The translations under genes were made by a program, and so were the position numbers. A DNA stretch of 64,000 nucleotides from Rathayibacter agropyri (GTDB lineage: Bacteria > Actinomycetota > Actinomycetes > Actinomycetales > Microbacteriaceae): assembly GCF_013249015.1 (NCBI RefSeq), contig NZ_JABRPL010000001.1, forward strand, positions 248,001-312,000, in the 5' to 3' direction. Positions 33,957 through 41,103 of the stretch are shown here, in pieces (position 1 is the stretch's first letter; the number at the start of each line of letters is the position of its first letter). Under the pieces are notes generated by a model that had not been told where the DNA came from, made no database searches, and worked only from the letters and a program-made list of their open reading frames with translations.

Positions 33957-34425
33957 CAGTACTGCCCTGCGGTGAATCGCGGTGGCCGCGCGGGCGCGGA
34001 GTGAGGGTAGTGGCCGATCCGCGGGGAGCGCTGGCCCGCTGACTCCGATGCGTCGCGCAGGGAAGATGGCGCTCTGCCGATGAGGTTCGGGCAGGCGCCG
34101 TCGCGGCGCCGCGCTGCCGTCGCCGCGTCCGGTGAGGACGCGAGGGACTCTCGGTCAGTGCCGGAGCGACACCGAGCGCGACATGGGCATGATCGGCCCC
34201 GACGGCGCTGCAGCACGTGCGGGGATCGGCTCATGACGGGGAAGTTCACGGCTTTCGCGCCCGAGCGCGCCCGCCGTCCTAGGTGAAGACGCCTCTGTCG
34301 CCCCTCAGCATCGGCGTGCCAACTCGATACGTATACATCTTAACTTGACTCACTCTGTGGTCTGGGTACGCTCTCGTCGTTCGATAGTTAGACGCACATG
34401 AAAATTAGCGAGAGGCGGCAGCGTC
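33957..34425. other. Gene-poor region before the decarboxylase cluster
   Basis: 469 bases without a supported gene; frames on both strands here have no conserved motif and Arg-rich compositions typical of out-of-frame GC-rich DNA. The last 110 bases turn locally A/T-rich and contain an ATACGTAT palindrome (34327-34334) just upstream of a good promoter. It marks the left edge of the accessory block. Confidence 0.5.
34345..34372 (+). promoter_or_regulatory. Promoter of the decarboxylase-adenylase-exporter operon
   Basis: TTGACT (34345-34350), 16-base spacer, TACGCT (34367-34372), the best -35/-10 pair seen in the window, giving a leader of about 47 bases. The ATACGTAT palindrome lies ten bases upstream of the -35 and could be an operator. 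Confidence 0.55.
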
Positions 34426-35877
34426 ATGAGTCGAGATCCCCGTGCAGGCCGCCCGCAACGAACCGCTCCACTCGCAGACCGGCTCAGAACTCTGACGTCG
34501 GGACGGCGCACCATCAACTTCCATGCGCTCCCACTACGCGGCGTTCGACGGTCACTGCCGCCGGAACTGGATGATCGCTACGCCGCGCTGCTCGACGGGG
34601 GCACGAGTGATGTGAGCTTCTCTGGTCGTGCTCTCGATTCGTTCTTCGCTCCGGTCGGCCCGCTCGCGGCTGCTCAGGAGGCGGCGGCCGTCGCCTTCGG
34701 CGCAGACTCCACCTACTTCGTCACCGGAGGCACGACCCAGTCGAACCGCATCGCGCTGGATGCACTCGGCGGGCCGGGATCCCGGCTGTTGCTCGATGGC
34801 TCCTCCCATCAATCGATGACCTTCGCCTCGACGGCTCTCGGAATGGAGGTGACGACGGTGAACGAGGTTCAGCGTGGCTCCGTCATGAGCCCGGATCTGG
34901 ACAGCATCGCCGAGCAGCTGCGATCCGCTTATCGCGCGGGGCGCCCGTTCACCATCGTTGCCATCACTGCCTCGTCCTACGACGGTCGCATCCTGCGGTT
35001 CGATCATGTTCTGCCCCGACTCATGGAAGCGTCCCCGGGGACGGCGATCCTCATCGATTCTGCCTGGACAGCCATCCATTCGTTCCACAAGGACGTCGTC
35101 CAGTACACAGCGTTACGCGCGGCGCGGGATCTCCGACTGCGGGGAGCCACACTTCCTCGGATCATCGTCACCATGTCCGCGCACAAGTCCATGTGCGCTC
35201 TGCGGCAGGGCTCCTATCTCCACGCTCTCGGTACCGAGGTCGACCCGAGCATCCGACGGGCGGTCTTCACGAATCACACCACCTCGCCCTCCTGGACAAT
35301 GCTCGCGTCTCTTGATCTGGCACGCCTGCATGCGGAGATGGTGGGGCAGGCCGCCGTGTCGTCCGCCATTCGGCTCCGCGAAGATTTCGCGTCCTCGATC
35401 CGGACGGATCCCCTTCTCCAGCAGGTGATCCGCAATGCCAACACGGTCGATGAATCGTCCGGCGTCTTCTTCACCGATCCGATGCGGATGACTCTGGACG
35501 TCAGTGATCTGGGCGAGTCCGGTCGAATTCGACAGCGGCTCTTCGACGAGTTCGGGATCTACATCGCGCGCTGCAGCCCCGCCGGTCTCACCCTCCACTT
35601 TCACATCGGAGTGGACGCGTCCGATGTCGCTGCTCTGCTCGGGGCGTTGCATTCGCTGGCTCGCGAGCGACGGATGGCGGCACAAAGCGAGATCAGCCGC
35701 TTCGCGATCGGATCCCTCGTCGACTGCCATGTCATCCCTTACCCGCCCGGCGTTCCTATCGCGGGCCCGGGTGATGTCTGGACCAGCGCGCACGATCGGA
35801 CGCTGCGCGAGGAAGGCAGCGCCGGAGCCGAGATCTTCTACATCCCCACCCGTGATGTCAGGGGAAATATCGAATGA
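34426..35877 (+). CDS. PLP-dependent Orn/Lys/Arg decarboxylase family protein
   Basis: Fold-type I PLP enzyme related to bacterial arginine, lysine and ornithine decarboxylases, 483 residues. Visible active-site elements: YFVTGGTTQSNRIAL near residue 97 (phosphate cup), His128 in DGSSHQS (ring-stacking His), Asp211 in ILIDSAWTAIHSFH (pyridine-N contact) and the Schiff-base Lys254 in MSAHKSMCALRQGS. The C-terminal domain has IPYPPGVP, the substrate-side motif of the family. There is no N-terminal response-regulator-like wing domain, so it is the short Gram-positive form. Substrate not predictable. Likely makes an amine for the coupled adenylating enzyme (ATGA overlap). GAGAGG precedes the ATG. 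Confidence 0.85.
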   Translation: MSRDPRAGRPQRTAPLADRLRTLTSGRRTINFHALPLRGVRRSLPPELDDRYAALLDGGTSDVSFSGRALDSFFAPVGPLAAAQEAAAVAFGADSTYFVTGGTTQSNRIALDALGGPGSRLLLDGSSHQSMTFASTALGMEVTTVNEVQRGSVMSPDLDSIAEQLRSAYRAGRPFTIVAITASSYDGRILRFDHVLPRLMEASPGTAILIDSAWTAIHSFHKDVVQYTALRAARDLRLRGATLPRIIVTMSAHKSMCALRQGSYLHALGTEVDPSIRRAVFTNHTTSPSWTMLASLDLARLHAEMVGQAAVSSAIRLREDFASSIRTDPLLQQVIRNANTVDESSGVFFTDPMRMTLDVSDLGESGRIRQRLFDEFGIYIARCSPAGLTLHFHIGVDASDVAALLGALHSLARERRMAAQSEISRFAIGSLVDCHVIPYPPGVPIAGPGDVWTSAHDRTLREEGSAGAEIFYIPTRDVRGNIE

Positions 35878-37346
35878 TCACTCTCGACGTCATCCGCCGC
35901 CATGCCCGCGCCATGCCGACTGCCATCGCCCTGGAGCATGCGGACACTCGGCTTACCTGGCGGGATTACGCCGCAGAGGTCGAACGGATCCTCCCGTGGG
36001 TCGACGCTCAGCTGCACTCCGACCTCGACGTTGTCGCTGTCGAATCCGACGTCAGTGCCGCCGTCTTCGTTTGTACGAGTGCGGTGGCCACTCTGGGGGT
36101 CCCCTGGGTCGCGCTCGACCCCGCTCAGTCGCCGGCAGTCAGGGAGGAGCAGCTGCGGGCGGTCGAACCGACGATGCTCCTCCGTACCCTTGACGAGCGG
36201 CTGGTCATCACGACCAGCGCCGGAGCGGTGAAGTACGCGGACATCCCGACTCTGACGGGGACGCCGATATCGCGCCAGCGAGATTTCCGAGCCATCGGGT
36301 TCACCTCGGGCACGACCGGCACGCCCAAGCTGGTACTTCGCGACACACCCAGCGAGAAGCGACGCACTGCGATGTTCATCGCGCGATTCGGCTTCAACAG
36401 GACCGACCGGTTCCTTCTCTGCCTTCCGCTCTCGCACGCTTCTAGTCACGGCTGGGCCAGAACCTTTCTCACGGCCGGGTCCTCGGTCGTCATCGAGCAG
36501 CCGGATTCGACCGCGGTGGCGACTCAGATCACGGAGAACGCGATCACCGCCACGCTCCTCGTGCCGCCGATGCTCACGCAGGTCCTGGCGGAACTGGCGA
36601 GTCGCAGTCACGGCCAGCGCCTGCGCTCCAGCCTGCGTTTCCTCCTGACCGGAGGGCGACATGTTCCAGCCACGCTCGTTGGACAGGTGCACAGCGCCCT
36701 CGGCCCCGTCCTGCACTCCTACTACGGCACGACCGAGACCGGCGTGAACGTCATGGCCGATCCCACCGACCTGCTCATAGACCCGCGCACGTCTGGTCGA
36801 GTCCTTGACGGCTCTCACGTCGCGGTTCTCGACGACGACGATCAGCCGCTCGCTGAGCCGGGCGACGTCGGCCGAATCGCTATCGCGAGCTATATGAGCG
36901 CCCAACGCTATGCGAATGCGGCGATCCCGTCGGTCGACATCGACGACCGGCACTACGTCCTCACGACTGATGTCGGTCGATTTGAGCAGAACGGCACCCT
37001 CCGCATCCTCGGCCGATCCAGTCGGTGCGCCAGCGCCACGGCATGCGGCGACCTCCTCGGGCTCGAAGACGATGTTCGCCTACTCCCCGATGTCACCGAC
37101 GTCGCCGCCCAGGTGGCCGCTGACGGGACCTCGCTGTCGGTCGTCCTCGCGCTCCGCCGCCAGCCGACCACGGAGCCCGCACTGCTGAAGTACCTCGCCG
37201 CCCGAATCGCGGTCCAACGCCGGGTGCAACTGCCCGTCAGCGTCCACACGGTCGAGCGACTCGTTTTTTCCTCCACCGGCAAGTTCGATCTGACCACAAC
37301 CCTCGCACCAACCAGCCTCGTCACTGAGTCACTCCCGAAGAACTAA
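35874..37346 (+). CDS. Stand-alone AMP-forming adenylating enzyme (ANL superfamily)
   Basis: 490-residue adenylate-forming enzyme. P-loop FTSGTTGTPKLVLRD near residue 142, LPLSHASSHGW, the A5 motif HSYYGTTETGVNV, A7 as TTDVGRFEQNG, and a C-terminal catalytic Lys in STGKFDLTT near residue 465. The hinge region that normally reads GRxDDxIKxxG is strongly altered (LGRSSRCASATACGDLLG). No carrier-protein, condensation or thioesterase domain is attached or adjacent. Start overlaps the decarboxylase stop by four bases. It could activate a carboxylate for transfer to CoA, to an external carrier, or directly to an amine; the substrate is unknown. Confidence 0.85.
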   Translation: MITLDVIRRHARAMPTAIALEHADTRLTWRDYAAEVERILPWVDAQLHSDLDVVAVESDVSAAVFVCTSAVATLGVPWVALDPAQSPAVREEQLRAVEPTMLLRTLDERLVITTSAGAVKYADIPTLTGTPISRQRDFRAIGFTSGTTGTPKLVLRDTPSEKRRTAMFIARFGFNRTDRFLLCLPLSHASSHGWARTFLTAGSSVVIEQPDSTAVATQITENAITATLLVPPMLTQVLAELASRSHGQRLRSSLRFLLTGGRHVPATLVGQVHSALGPVLHSYYGTTETGVNVMADPTDLLIDPRTSGRVLDGSHVAVLDDDDQPLAEPGDVGRIAIASYMSAQRYANAAIPSVDIDDRHYVLTTDVGRFEQNGTLRILGRSSRCASATACGDLLGLEDDVRLLPDVTDVAAQVAADGTSLSVVLALRRQPTTEPALLKYLAARIAVQRRVQLPVSVHTVERLVFSSTGKFDLTTTLAPTSLVTESLPKN

Positions 37347-37354
37347 GGAGCACC

Positions 37355-38320
37355 GTGAAAAACACATCGTTCGCAGCAGTCGTCTACTGCCTCATTCCAC
37401 CGCTGATCTGGGGCGGCATGTTCCCGATCGCAAACAGCCTTTCCCCGACGGTCAATGCTTTTTACATGACGCTCATTCGGTATGGCCTCGCCGCCGCGAT
37501 CCTTATCCTGATGCTCCTGCGCGCCGAAGGCCGCCCTGCCTTCGGCACCGAAGGTAAGACCGTTCGACTCTTTCTTCTCGGCGCTTCCGGATTCGCCGGA
37601 TTCGGCCTTCTTGCTTTCACCGCGCTGAGTTACACGAGCGCTCCGAATGTCAGCCTCATCATGGCGATGATGCCTGCCATCGGGGCCATTGTCGGGGCCG
37701 TCGCCACGCGGAAGGTTCCCCCGCTCTACACCGTCGGCAGTATCGTGCTCGCCTTCATTGGAGTCGCGCTCGTAATCACTCAGGGCGACGTCGGCAAGCT
37801 GGCCAGCGGACAGCTCGGACTGGGTGAATTCCTCGCGCTCCTCGGCGCGATCTGCTGGGTCAGCTACACCCGAGGTGCCGGGGCATTCCCCGGATGGTCC
37901 GCTCTCCGGTACACCACCCTGACCACGGCGCTCGGATGCATCTCCATCGCCGCCGCGGTCATCGTCGCGACGGCCGTCGGCTACGTGTCTGTGCCCACCG
38001 TCGAGCATGTCCTCGCGGGCTGGCCGCAGTTGGCCTACCTCATCATCTTCGCTGGAGTCGTCGCCGTCCTGTCGTGGAACAAGGGCATCGGCATGCTCGG
38101 TGCGCTCAACGGCACGCTCTTCATGAACCTGGTCCCCGTCACGACGTTCACCATCAGCATGATCGGCGGCTTCCGCCCCGGTCCGGTCGCTCTCCTCGGC
38201 GCTGCGATCGTCCTCACTGCGCTCCTTCTCAACAACTGGCTGAGCCGTCGAGCAGCGGCGCGAGTCACCCCCTCGGCCGTCGTTCCGGCACCCCGCGAGC
38301 CTCTCAGCCAGTCGAGGTAA
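37355..38320 (+). CDS. EamA/DMT family exporter
   Basis: 321-residue membrane protein with ten predicted helices in two EamA repeats (LIPPLIWGGMFPIANSL ... and, after the loop near residue 150, FLALLGAICWVSYTRGAGAF ...). DMT proteins of this kind export amino acids, amines or other small metabolites. GTG start eight bases after the adenylase stop, with AAGGAG overlapping that stop, so it is translated from the same transcript; export of the pathway product is the natural reading. Confidence 0.9.
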   Translation: MKNTSFAAVVYCLIPPLIWGGMFPIANSLSPTVNAFYMTLIRYGLAAAILILMLLRAEGRPAFGTEGKTVRLFLLGASGFAGFGLLAFTALSYTSAPNVSLIMAMMPAIGAIVGAVATRKVPPLYTVGSIVLAFIGVALVITQGDVGKLASGQLGLGEFLALLGAICWVSYTRGAGAFPGWSALRYTTLTTALGCISIAAAVIVATAVGYVSVPTVEHVLAGWPQLAYLIIFAGVVAVLSWNKGIGMLGALNGTLFMNLVPVTTFTISMIGGFRPGPVALLGAAIVLTALLLNNWLSRRAAARVTPSAVVPAPREPLSQSR

Positions 38321-38354
38321 TTGTCGTCGTCTCGAGAGAGTCGAAGTAGTGTGA

Positions 38355-38386
38355 GGGGGCGAATACGACCAGTATTGGCCCCCTTT
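38355..38386 (+). promoter_or_regulatory. Dyad between exporter and arsR: operator and/or terminator
   Basis: GGGGGCGAATAC, five-base loop, GTATTGGCCCCC: 11 of 12 pairs, followed by TTT. It lies 35 bases after the exporter stop and 14 bases before the ArsR start. It fits a terminator, but the inner AATAC-N5-GTATT also has the size of an ArsR-family operator half-site pair. Confidence 0.5.
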
Positions 38387-38400
38387 CATGAGAGGACGTC

Positions 38401-38730
38401 ATGGCGCCCCGGACCTTCCACCCAGAACTCGGCTCCGTCGATGTCATTAACCTTCTCCGCGCCGTTGCCGATCCCGTCCGTCTCCGCGTCTTTGACATTC
38501 TCGATGACGGCAATGAATACACGTGCTCCGCGCTCGCTCAACGGCTTGACATCCCTCTGCCAACGATGAGCTACCACCTCAAGACTCTCCGTGAAGCCGG
38601 ATACACGCGGAGCCGCAAAGACGGCACCACGCGGTGGACTTCTCTTCGATCAGACGATCTCGACGGCGCCTTCCCGGGACTGCGTTCCACTCTCTCGACT
38701 CTCGCCGAGGCGAGCGCGCGTCAACGCTGA
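38401..38730 (+). CDS. ArsR-family winged-helix transcriptional regulator
   Basis: 109-residue DNA-binding protein. ArsR HTH: VINLLRAVADPVRLRVFDIL, then YTCSALAQRLDIPLPTMSYHLKTLREAGYTRSRKDGTTRW. The usual metal-binding ELCVCD motif in helix alpha-3 is absent and only one Cys remains, so a metal sensor is unlikely; an organic ligand is possible. GAGAGGA precedes the ATG. Downstream of the exporter and in the same direction; probable local regulator of the cluster. Confidence 0.88.
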   Translation: MAPRTFHPELGSVDVINLLRAVADPVRLRVFDILDDGNEYTCSALAQRLDIPLPTMSYHLKTLREAGYTRSRKDGTTRWTSLRSDDLDGAFPGLRSTLSTLAEASARQR

Positions 38731-38818: not shown

Positions 38819-39679
38819 CTAGCGGGCGTCGAGCAGTTCGTCCTCAACCTCGGCGTCGCTGCGTCCCCGACGGCGGCGCCGTGCTTCGCGGCGCTCCTCT
38901 GCCGCGACCACCTCGGGGTCGTCGGCGTTGCGGAGGCGGTACTCGTGCCGAATCGCCCAGCCGAGCCCCCCAAACCCCATGACAGCGAAGAGCACCCACT
39001 GAATCGCGTAGCTGATATGCAGGCCCTCGTCGGCGACAGGTTTCATCGCCGCCAGCGGGGGAGCATCGAGGGGAGCCGGCGCCTCGGCGACAAGCAGACC
39101 GTATGCGGCGGTGCGCAGCGGCTCCTCGAGCTGCGCCGAGAGGTCGTCCAGCTGGATCGTGGCGATCTGACCGGCCGGAGCGGAGCGGCCCTCGATGCGG
39201 CCTTCCGCCGGCTTCAGCCGGGCGATGACCGTGACCTGGTCCTCGGGCGGAGCGGGGACCGTATCGGGGGAGTCCTGGTTCGAGCCAACAGGCACCCAGC
39301 CGCGGTCCACGATGAACACGCTGCCGTCGCCGAGACGGAGCGGCGTCAGGACCTCGAACCCCGGATTGCCGTTGTAGGGGCGGTTGCGCACGAGCGTCTG
39401 GCCGTCGACCTCGTACACGCCGCTGACCTCGACGGGACGGTACTCGAGCGAGTCGTCCCAGGCCGCGGCAGCGGGCAGCAGTCCGTCAAGCGCGACCGGA
39501 TCGGCGGTCCAGTTGGCCGTCACCAACCGGTTGGTGGAGGCCGCCTGGTCCAGGCGAGCGACCTGCCACCGCGAGAGCAGCACACATGCGACGGCGAAGA
39601 CGACGGCCAGTGCGAGGTAGCCGAACCACCGCCGTGAAAAGACGAAGCGCCAGGACGGGTGAGGCGCGTCCTCACTCAT
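38819..39679 (-). CDS. SURF1 family cytochrome oxidase biogenesis protein
   Basis: 286-residue protein with one helix near each end (about 19-36 and 219-239) and a periplasmic-side domain between, the SURF1 layout. Motifs: RWQVARLDQ, YRPVEVSGVY, LVRNRPYNGNPGFEVLTPLRL, VFIVDRGWVP and the C-terminal HISYAIQWVLFAVMGFGG. It assists heme A insertion into aa3-type oxidase, matching ctaA and ctaB in the window. The ATG overlaps the stop of the upstream 77-residue gene (ATGA). Confidence 0.93.
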   Translation of the reverse strand: MSEDAPHPSWRFVFSRRWFGYLALAVVFAVACVLLSRWQVARLDQAASTNRLVTANWTADPVALDGLLPAAAAWDDSLEYRPVEVSGVYEVDGQTLVRNRPYNGNPGFEVLTPLRLGDGSVFIVDRGWVPVGSNQDSPDTVPAPPEDQVTVIARLKPAEGRIEGRSAPAGQIATIQLDDLSAQLEEPLRTAAYGLLVAEAPAPLDAPPLAAMKPVADEGLHISYAIQWVLFAVMGFGGLGWAIRHEYRLRNADDPEVVAAEERREARRRRRGRSDAEVEDELLDAR

Positions 39680-39909
39680 TGCGCGGCCCCGCGATCGACG
39701 GTGTAGAGCGGCTTTACCTCGAGCGGAAACTCCCGTGCAAGGAGGAATTCGCGCAAGAACTCAAGGTGCTCGCCACAGGCGAGCCAGGTCTTCCGGCGAT
39801 CCTCCGCGTGAAGACGGGGATTGCGCCACTCGATGGCCCAGGTCGCGGTGTTCGGACAGCCGGCCCGAGAGCAGGCGTGAACGTCCGGTACCCGACCCAG
39901 CGGGATCAC
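39676..39909 (-). CDS. Small Cys/His-motif protein in the SURF1 operon
   Basis: 77 residues from a GTG at 39909 that overlaps the stop of the upstream DUF3099 gene as GTGA; its own stop overlaps SURF1 as ATGA. It contains C-x4-C (CSRAGC) near residue 13 and C-xx-H (CGEH) near residue 45, separated by WAIEWRNPRLHAEDRRKTW: a plausible zinc knuckle. Similar short proteins are common beside SURF1 in actinobacteria as far as I recall, but no function is known to me. Confidence 0.75.
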   Translation of the reverse strand: MIPLGRVPDVHACSRAGCPNTATWAIEWRNPRLHAEDRRKTWLACGEHLEFLREFLLAREFPLEVKPLYTVDRGAAQ

Positions 39910-40262
39910 GAGTGCTGTCCCGCGGGGTCGCCGCCCTCGGGCACGTCGGTGCCGACACCGCTGTTCGTGGCAGCCGGGGCGTCGGCAGCCGGCCGCGGAG
40001 CGGGCCGGGACAGCACAATCGCTCCCGGTCGTTCGACGTTGCCCCTCTCGCCCGCACTCCCGACATTGGCGAGCACGACGGCGAAGTACGGAAGGACGAC
40101 GGCTCCGATCGCGAAGAAGAGCAGCCACCAGCCGTGCGCGAAGAGGAGGCAGATCACGCACAGCAGGCGGATGCTCATCGCGATCGAATATTTGATCGCA
40201 CGGGAGCGCCGCTCGGCGCTCGGCGACGGCGGGAGGGAGGTGAGTGTCTCGCGTGATTTCAC
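39906..40262 (-). CDS. DUF3099-type small membrane protein
   Basis: 118 residues, GTG start, two adjacent hydrophobic helices (about 25-43 and 46-66, RLLCVICLLFAHGWW and LLFFAIGAVVLPYFAVVLA) with charged N-terminus and a Pro/Ala-rich tail. This matches the DUF3099 pattern. First of three overlapping genes with SURF1. A TAGGCT box lies nine bases before the start, so the mRNA may be nearly leaderless. Confidence 0.8.
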   Translation of the reverse strand: MKSRETLTSLPPSPSAERRSRAIKYSIAMSIRLLCVICLLFAHGWWLLFFAIGAVVLPYFAVVLANVGSAGERGNVERPGAIVLSRPAPRPAADAPAATNSGVGTDVPEGGDPAGQHS

Positions 40263-40392
40263 AGCCCTGTAAGCCTACGTCCCACGGGGTGGGGGCAGGC
40301 CGGGTGGCCCGCATCCTCGGATCTGTTGCGCTGGGCGCCTCTAGGATGTACGGGTTGTCCGGCGCCGCCCGCGTGCCGGCAGGAGGGACACC

Positions 40393-41103
40393 ATGACCAC
40401 GCCGCGCACCGTCCTCGTCACCGGGGGCAACCGGGGGATTGGGTACTCCATTGCCCAGGAGTTCGTGGCCGCCGGTCACCGGGTCGCCGTCACGGCGCGC
40501 TCGGGCTCGGGTCCGGAGGGGTCGCTCACCGTGGTCGCCGACGTGACCGATGCCGCCTCCATCGACGCCGCTTTCACGCAGATCGAGGCCGAACTCGGTC
40601 CTGTCGAAATCCTGGTAGCCAACGCCGGCATCACCCGCGACACTCTGCTGCTGCGCATGACGGAGGAGGATTTCACCTCCGTCATCGACACGAACCTCAC
40701 CGGCGCCTTCCGCGTGGTCAAGCGCGCATCCAAGGGCATGCTCAAGCAGCGATTCGGCCGCGTCGTGCTTATCTCGAGTGTGGTCGGCCTGTACGGCTCG
40801 CCCGGTCAGATCAACTACTCGTCGTCGAAGGCCGCCCTGGTCGGCTTCGCTCGCTCGCTCACGCGGGAGTTGGGCGCCCGCAATATCACCGCCAACGTTG
40901 TCGCCCCGGGCTTCATCGAGACCGATATGACGGCCGCGCTCCCGGCCGAACAGCAGGCCGAGTACCGCAAGAGCATTCCTCTCGCGCGCTATGGCACGGC
41001 GGCAGAAGTCGCGAAGGTCACCCGCTGGCTCACCAGCGACGAGGCGGCCTACATCTCCGGCGCTGTGATCCCTGTCGACGGCGGCCTCGGGATGGGGCAC
41101 TGA
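40393..41103 (+). CDS. fabG: 3-oxoacyl-[acyl-carrier-protein] reductase family SDR
   Basis: NAD(P)-dependent short-chain dehydrogenase, 236 residues. Cofactor motif VTGGNRGIG at the N-terminus, NAGIT, catalytic Ser in VVLISSVVG and the YxxxK pair in INYSSSKAAL, then VAPGFIETDM and the C-terminal SGAVIPVDGGLGMGH. This is the FabG pattern of fatty acid synthesis; the isolated location leaves the precise substrate open. AGGAGGG precedes the ATG. Confidence 0.9.
   Translation: MTTPRTVLVTGGNRGIGYSIAQEFVAAGHRVAVTARSGSGPEGSLTVVADVTDAASIDAAFTQIEAELGPVEILVANAGITRDTLLLRMTEEDFTSVIDTNLTGAFRVVKRASKGMLKQRFGRVVLISSVVGLYGSPGQINYSSSKAALVGFARSLTRELGARNITANVVAPGFIETDMTAALPAEQQAEYRKSIPLARYGTAAEVAKVTRWLTSDEAAYISGAVIPVDGGLGMGH

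What the first reader, a model, noticed from the sequence alone, without database searches (positions are those of the whole stretch)
34345..38730. Uncharacterised decarboxylase-adenylase-exporter-ArsR cluster
Seen: a PLP decarboxylase, a carrier-free ANL adenylating enzyme (ATGA overlap) and an EamA exporter (8-base gap) behind one good promoter, followed by an ArsR regulator. Known: Orn/Lys/Arg decarboxylases make diamines or agmatine; ANL enzymes activate carboxylates; EamA proteins export small metabolites. Inference: a minimal pathway that decarboxylates an amino acid, joins the amine to or activates an acyl/amino-acid group, and exports the product, without NRPS carrier domains. I do not recognise a described pathway with this gene set.
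Basis: partly seen in the sequence, partly recalled or inferred. Interest (0 to 1): 0.72.

Follow-up and report, generated by a model that had tools for sequence, protein, structure and literature searches.

The report
Mobile three-gene small-molecule pathway
A small block of genes in a Rathayibacter bacterium encodes a decarboxylating enzyme, an activating enzyme and an exporter; the same trio recurs in unrelated bacteria, in one genus with two of the genes fused, so it is probably a real, undescribed minimal pathway that makes and exports a small molecule still to be identified.

Summary
At 34426-38320 a PLP decarboxylase (dec), a carrier-free adenylating enzyme (ade) and an EamA exporter (eam) form a tight operon, followed by an ArsR gene. 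The window is from a Rathayibacter close to R. iranicus, which shares the block; in 14 other Rathayibacter genomes the flanking genes are neighbours, so it looks like an insertion.

The trio recurs in the same order in another actinobacterium (G291), in two genomes reached through a Pseudomonadota search (G703, G914) and in four Azospirillum replicons, where ade and eam are one fused protein.

Ade keeps the adenylation motifs but not a recognisable A8 motif, so it is no ordinary acyl-CoA ligase. Dec is a separate clade of the Orn/Lys/Arg decarboxylase fold, without the Glu526 of CadA and SpeF and with a clade-specific histidine; relatives lie beside aspartate antiporter genes or in a siderophore cluster. 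I favour an acidic amino acid (Asp or Glu) as substrate, not a diamine pathway. Favoured product: a decarboxylated amino acid activated as its adenylate, turned into an amide or lactam, and exported. The chemistry is inferred; no product is known.

The parts
34345..34372 (+). promoter-like site TTGACT-16-TACGCT
   Evidence: read from sequence; 8 of 12, not found by scan; conserved in R. iranicus as TTGACT/TATGCT
34426..35877 (+). dec: short PLP decarboxylase of the Orn/Lys/Arg fold, without the N-terminal extension of CadA-type enzymes
35874..37346 (+). ade: carrier-free class I adenylate-forming enzyme without a recognisable A8 motif
37355..38320 (+). eam: EamA/DMT-family exporter
38353..38385 (+). 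hairpin between eam and arsR (terminator and/or operator)
   Evidence: z -5.56; conserved in R. iranicus, differing by one-sided changes that keep or add pairs
38401..38730 (+). arsR: ArsR/SmtB-type winged-helix regulator with a single Cys
   Evidence: no hit at the syntenic site of 14 other Rathayibacter

Best explanation
A horizontally moved, self-contained pathway. Step 1: dec, a PLP enzyme, removes the alpha-carboxylate of an amino acid; I favour an acidic one (Asp to beta-alanine or Glu to GABA). Step 2: ade adenylates a carboxylate and, instead of passing it to CoA or a carrier protein, lets an amine attack the adenylate directly, giving an amide or, if both groups are on the same molecule, a lactam. 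Step 3: the EamA protein exports the product; in Azospirillum adenylase and exporter are one polypeptide. Shown by sequence: the recurring association of the three genes, the fusion, conserved catalytic residues, the unrecognisable A8 motif, the distinct decarboxylase clade, the insertion in Rathayibacter. Inferred: direction of transport, substrate class, amide or lactam product. Unknown: the molecule and its biological role.
For: Trio in the same order in Rathayibacter (window and R. iranicus L001), G291, G703, G914 and four Azospirillum replicons; the Azospirillum Az39 gene of 845 aa holds both AMP-binding and EamA domains. Trio decs, the G1510 dec and two Rhizobium NRPS-cluster decs form one clade of 12, 100/100; the nine trio ades form one clade with a Streptomyces homologue, 98/97. 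Dec keeps Lys367, His245, Asp330, Ser364, His366 and Trp333 (CadA numbering) in 11 of 11 trio or Rhizobium NRPS-cluster decs aligned. Ade keeps TSGT.(G/S).PK, YYGTTETG and the A10 Lys in 9 of 9; I recognise the A8 consensus in 0 of 9. The A8 glycine contacts pantetheine in related enzymes (PMC4667280, passage). Position 235 is S/G/T in the 6 trio ades aligned, not the Asp that holds the alpha-ammonium in NRPS A-domains (role recalled; the EntF control gave the code I recall for it). Acid-substrate clues: position 526 A/N/T and position 538 His in 11 of 11; sister long decarboxylases adjoin aspT in 4 of the 6 neighbourhoods examined; a same-clade dec sits in a salicylate siderophore NRPS cluster, and aspartate-derived beta-alanine is the proposed monomer in the related madurastatins (PMC10951976, passages).
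Against: No substrate or product has been measured. AdiA, a true arginine decarboxylase, has Thr at position 526, so loss of Glu does not by itself exclude a basic substrate. Two of the six sister long decarboxylases examined have other neighbours. In the Rhizobium cluster the N-monooxygenase matches lysine N6-monooxygenase MbtG best among solved structures (4.4e-124), but its only strong NCBIfam row is histamine N-monooxygenase, far below cut-off (169 against 700), so the dec there might instead supply an amine to be hydroxylated; and the A-domain next to that dec has a code I cannot read, with Asp235. EamA is not exclusive to the trio: stand-alone EamA genes 54.7-58.8% identical to that of G703 exist in Burkholderia, Paraburkholderia and Pantoea, with no dec or ade hit in the 15 kb fetched around them, so the exporter may have been recruited more than once. 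In G1510 only eam looks whole; dec is shortened at its end and ade is a 24-25 residue remnant. The AF2 models were unusable (mean pLDDT 39.1 and 36.2), so no pocket could be modelled.
Confidence: 0.45

Rival explanations
1. Polyamine-conjugate pathway: dec makes putrescine, cadaverine or agmatine; ade joins it to an acid; EamA exports the conjugate.
For: OKR fold and catalytic residues kept; AdiA also lacks Glu526; the Rhizobium cluster with a same-clade dec has an N-monooxygenase of the Lys/Orn/amine family; carrier-free amide ligases exist (recalled).
Against: Outside the basic decarboxylase clades; His at 538 and Asn/His/Arg at 536 in 11 of 11; aspT next to 4 of 6 sister long decs.
Confidence: 0.2
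2. Amino-acid decarboxylation and amine-export pair for pH or nitrogen balance, with ade as an accessory or regulatory enzyme.
For: Sister long decs sit beside antiporter genes.
Against: Ade motifs are intact in 9 of 9 and ade is fused to the exporter in Azospirillum; EamA is not an aspT-type antiporter. On checking, G1510, which I first counted for this reading, has a shortened dec as well as a decayed ade, so it counts for little; I lowered this rival from 0.12 to 0.10 for that reason.
Confidence: 0.1
3. Adenylation comes first: ade activates the amino acid and dec acts on the activated or conjugated form, like aspartyl-carrier decarboxylation by FlvN/FlvO in fluvirucin biosynthesis, but without a carrier.
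For: Pairing of adenylation enzyme and PLP decarboxylase in fluvirucin (PMC10951976, passage).
Against: No carrier domain reported in the operon; ade lacks Asp235 and a recognisable A8.
Confidence: 0.1
4. Conjugation of a host or hormone acid for export, in the manner of iaaL-matE in Pseudomonas (ligase plus MATE exporter; PMC4544800, abstract).
For: Some carriers are plant-associated (Azospirillum Az39 from wheat rhizosphere; R. iranicus recalled as a wheat pathogen).
Against: G914, a 1.8 Mb genome of unknown habitat, also has the trio; no host link was tested.
Confidence: 0.13

Closest known systems
Orn/Lys/Arg decarboxylases (AAT-fold; CadA, AdiA, SpeF; short 'ancestral' forms, PMC8503589, passages)
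   Same: PF01276 match, PLP lysine and catalytic residues
   Different: trio decs 19-26% identical to CadA, AdiA and SpeF, own clade, PGH loop replaced by HALP/HTLP type, Glu526 absent, His538 present, no N-terminal extension
Rv2531c-type long decarboxylases (9n0o/9n0n); the review seen says activity not clarified (PMC12910592, passages)
   Same: best PDB match of dec (1.7e-30); shared FHALP and ALRQ stretches
   Different: trio dec is about half as long; His538 where the three long decs aligned have T/N
Acyl-CoA ligases and NRPS A-domains (class I adenylate-forming enzymes)
   Same: A3, A5 and A10 motifs
   Different: no recognisable A8, no carrier, no Asp235; NCBIfam cut-offs far from met in the rows shown
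Carrier-free amide ligases (e.g. McbA, CfaL; recalled)
   Same: single adenylase assumed to pass the acid straight to an amine
   Different: no sequence comparison made; here paired with a decarboxylase and, in Azospirillum, fused to an exporter
iaaL-matE (Pseudomonas syringae; PMC4544800, abstract)
   Same: conjugating ligase next to a small-molecule exporter
   Different: no decarboxylase mentioned in the abstract; MATE rather than EamA

Membership tests
Orn/Lys/Arg decarboxylase superfamily | PF01276 above gathering score | tested here: met
   118.2 bits against 27
Orn/Lys/Arg decarboxylase superfamily | PLP Lys and catalytic His/Asp/Ser/Trp | tested here: met
   all present (roles recalled)
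Basic amino acid decarboxylase (CadA/SpeF type) | Glu526 and PGH loop | tested here: not met
   Ala and FHALP in the window protein; AdiA also lacks the Glu
Basic amino acid decarboxylase | activity on Lys, Orn or Arg | not testable with these tools
   needs enzyme assay
Fatty acyl-CoA ligase | family score above NCBIfam cut-off | tested here: not met
   best row 130.5 against 476; menE 126.8 against 330.15; 25 of 79 rows shown
Class I adenylate-forming enzyme | A3, A5 motifs and A10 Lys | tested here: met
Thioester-forming adenylase | A8 motif | tested here: not met
   not recognisable in 9 of 9; in this alignment the glycine column holds G only in G703
NRPS adenylation domain for alpha-amino acids | Asp235 and a carrier domain | tested here: not met
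EamA/DMT exporter | EamA repeats | tested here: met
   2 stretches, 90.7 bits
EamA/DMT exporter | export of a small metabolite | not testable with these tools
   needs transport assay
ArsR/SmtB regulator | NF033788 subfamily score | tested here: met
   60.6 against 55
ArsR/SmtB metal sensor | paired metal-binding Cys | tested here: not met
   single Cys in the translation

The most novel reading that the evidence does not exclude
A new class of minimal natural-product pathway: a decarboxylase clade that converts acidic amino acids into omega-amino acids, and an adenylase clade that has dropped thioester chemistry and hands its adenylate straight to an amine, coupled to (and in Azospirillum fused with) the exporter, spread between phyla as a two- or three-gene cassette.
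Probability: 0.3. Interest if true: 0.75.

Novelty: new variant of a known kind. Interest (0 to 1): 0.55.

Why it matters
Every protein belongs to a known superfamily, but I found no paper describing the set. If right, it is a very small, transferable route to an exported small molecule, present in Azospirillum (recalled as a crop inoculant), and it offers a testable substrate for a decarboxylase branch related to the uncharacterised Rv2531c.

Tried and rejected
AF2 models of ade (A3) and dec (A4), two sequences each, were unusable (mean pLDDT 36.2 and 39.1); no fold search was run on them.

An ordinary fatty-acid CoA ligase was rejected on family scores and A8. An association limited to this strain was rejected. 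EamA as proof of one shared product was rejected, since close stand-alone EamA genes exist elsewhere; the EamA tree has only 4 starred forks of 11 and does not group the trio EamA proteins together with support.

An isochorismatase-family gene beside the trio in G914 and in Azospirillum was considered as a fourth member; the two are only about 31% identical and the family is common (recalled), so it was left open. Four of the 6 adenylase hits among 394 Actinomycetes genomes and four of the 5 among 398 genomes of the phylum of G409 had neither dec nor eam in the 9-15 kb fetched around them (for G523 the contig start leaves 1.7 kb on one side). In the family of R. iranicus 8 of 299 genomes had a dec hit at 1e-25; seven of them are 28-33% identical, four of these seven were put in the tree and grouped with a Peribacillus decarboxylase, away from the trio (the tool warns that long branches meet there); their surroundings were not fetched beyond 1.5 kb on each side. 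Of the 8 Rhizobium plasmid records with dec at about 42% over 95% only 2 were opened. The ORF 39676-41100 (-), used as a flank marker, is probably not a gene: no Pfam hit, and a short-chain dehydrogenase ORF lies on the other strand. PHROGs, phage records and promoter scan gave nothing useful.
Full report
What is there. The window carries dec (34426-35877), ade (35874-37346), eam (37355-38320) and arsR (38401-38730) on the plus strand. Dec and ade overlap by ATGA; eam starts 8 bases after ade. Pfam places them in OKR_DC_1, AMP-binding, EamA and ArsR-type HTH. The best PDB match of dec is 9n0o/9n0n (1.7e-30); PMC12910592 (passages) lists 9N0O as Rv2531c of Mycobacterium tuberculosis and says its activity was not clarified.

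Where it comes from. A pattern scan of the species-level genome collection with ade found one close relative, in Rathayibacter iranicus NCPPB 2253. The window aligns to it at 88.2% over 12.9 kb (block included) and 88.6% over the next 8.6 kb; the four-gene block alone is 85.3% identical. I infer a Rathayibacter other than R. iranicus; the species is not established.

Insertion. A dec search in 15 genomes of the genus found it in 1, R. iranicus. The ABC-F-like gene upstream of dec is found in 15 of 15. In the 14 others the ends of the ABC-F-like gene and of SURF1 are 3-310 bases apart and no arsR hit lies there; in the window they are 4.86 kb apart. The block has lower GC (64.5%; 0.7% of the overlapping 4.3-kb stretches of this window are as low) and lower third-position GC (0.67-0.80 against 0.85-0.90 in four flanking genes). 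This fits acquisition by transfer.

The trio elsewhere. An adenylase search of 394 Actinomycetes genomes gave 6 hits at 1e-30; two (R. iranicus and G291) have the trio, the other four have neither dec nor eam in the 14-15 kb fetched. In 398 genomes of the phylum of G409 (the genome behind an uncultured Marinobacterium contig, so Pseudomonadota) there were 5 hits at 1e-35; one (G703) has the trio, four do not. In 369 genomes of the class of G703 there were 2 hits at 1e-50, G703 and G914, both trios. In 195 genomes of G703's family dec gave 2 hits at 1e-40, G703 and G1510. G1510 is a damaged copy: eam looks whole, dec ends about 55 residues early and ade is a 24-25 residue remnant, in the order eam-dec-remnant. 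Among 35 genomes of the order of G291 only G291 itself hit. In plasmids, four Azospirillum replicons have dec followed by one gene of 845-853 aa; the one scanned with Pfam carries AMP-binding and EamA domains together, and the other three match both halves. All intact trios examined have the order dec-ade-eam; in G291 dec and ade are about 440 bases apart. The association is rare but recurrent in unrelated lineages.

Adenylase. The nine trio enzymes form a clade with a Streptomyces plasmid homologue (98/97), apart from the fatty-acid ligases and NRPS domain used as references. A3, an A4 of the P.(Y/S)H type, A5 (YYGTTETG) and the A10 lysine are kept in 9 of 9; I cannot recognise the A8 consensus in any, and its glycine column holds Gly only in G703. 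In FadD32 the A8 glycine is described as the residue that contacts pantetheine in other adenylating enzymes (PMC4667280, passage). Position 235 is not Asp in the 6 aligned. PF13193 (AMP-binding_C) was not reported for the 5 trio ades scanned. Inference: the enzyme adenylates a carboxylate that lacks a neighbouring alpha-amine and does not make a normal thioester.

Decarboxylase. The trio decs, the G1510 dec and two Rhizobium NRPS-cluster decs form a clade with 100/100 support, separate from long Rv2531c-like decs, from CadA/AdiA/SpeF and from a Peribacillus/Microbacteriaceae group (the tool warns about long branches, G914 among them). Catalytic residues are kept; the Glu526 and PGH loop of CadA and SpeF are not. 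AdiA has Thr at 526, a caution against reading this alone. Two contexts bear on the substrate. First, four of six long sister decs examined lie beside an aspartate-alanine antiporter gene, one of them also beside aspartate 4-decarboxylase; the other two do not. Second, the Rhizobium K1/93 dec lies in a cluster with salicylate synthase (406 bits against a cut-off of 325), an N-monooxygenase closest to MbtG among solved structures (4.4e-124), an A-domain whose code I recall as Thr, and a terminal reductase domain. In madurastatins, related phenolate-hydroxamate siderophores, an aspartate 1-decarboxylase is proposed to supply beta-alanine (PMC10951976, passages). Against this, the monooxygenase's only strong NCBIfam row is histamine N-monooxygenase, well below its cut-off (169 against 700), so an amine-supplying role of that dec is open, and the neighbouring A-domain code is unreadable. 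The balance points to Asp or Glu, without proving it.

Exporter and regulators. EamA in trios is not exclusive: stand-alone relatives at 54.7-58.8% occur in Burkholderia, Paraburkholderia and Pantoea without dec or ade hits around them. Regulators differ: ArsR in Rathayibacter, LysR genes beside the Azospirillum copies, and a LysR-like ORF after eam in G703 (by eye). The ArsR here has one Cys, so classical metal sensing is unlikely. The hairpin before arsR may end the operon or be an operator.

Verdict. The set appears undescribed in the papers searched (open-licence papers only, listings seen). The product is unknown. Best reading: a mobile, carrier-free amide- or lactam-forming pathway fed by a decarboxylated, probably acidic, amino acid and coupled to export.

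Noticed in passing
L068, L083, L084, L085: Long Rv2531c-type decarboxylases beside aspT antiporter genes in Rhodobacter, Rhizobium, Ensifer and Phyllobacterium (4 of 6 long decs examined); suggests an acidic amino acid substrate for an uncharacterised branch.
   Followed up: partly
L007, L091, L092 (Rhizobium sp. K1/93 plasmid): Mycobactin-like salicylate siderophore NRPS cluster with a trio-type decarboxylase inside; the one paper search made for Rhizobium tumorigenes NRPS clusters found none.
   Followed up: partly
window 38353-38385: Strong hairpin between eam and arsR, conserved in R. iranicus.
   Followed up: partly
L082 9477-12040 (G1510): Damaged trio: eam looks whole, dec is shortened at its end, and ade is a short remnant.
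   Followed up: partly
L062 12878-13477 and 16084-16794 (G914): By eye, a LuxR-like autoinducer-domain protein and a LuxI-like protein a few kb from the trio, on the other strand; not tested.
   Followed up: no
L050 7001-8614 (Streptomyces plasmid): Adenylase homologue of the trio clade with a degenerate P-loop and no A10 lysine, near ScbR/ScbA-type genes; may be a non-catalytic relative.
   Followed up: no
L010, L067 (Rhizobium leguminosarum): Long decarboxylase followed by a biotin-carboxylase-like gene and a C45 peptidase, in one strain next to nifHDK.
   Followed up: no
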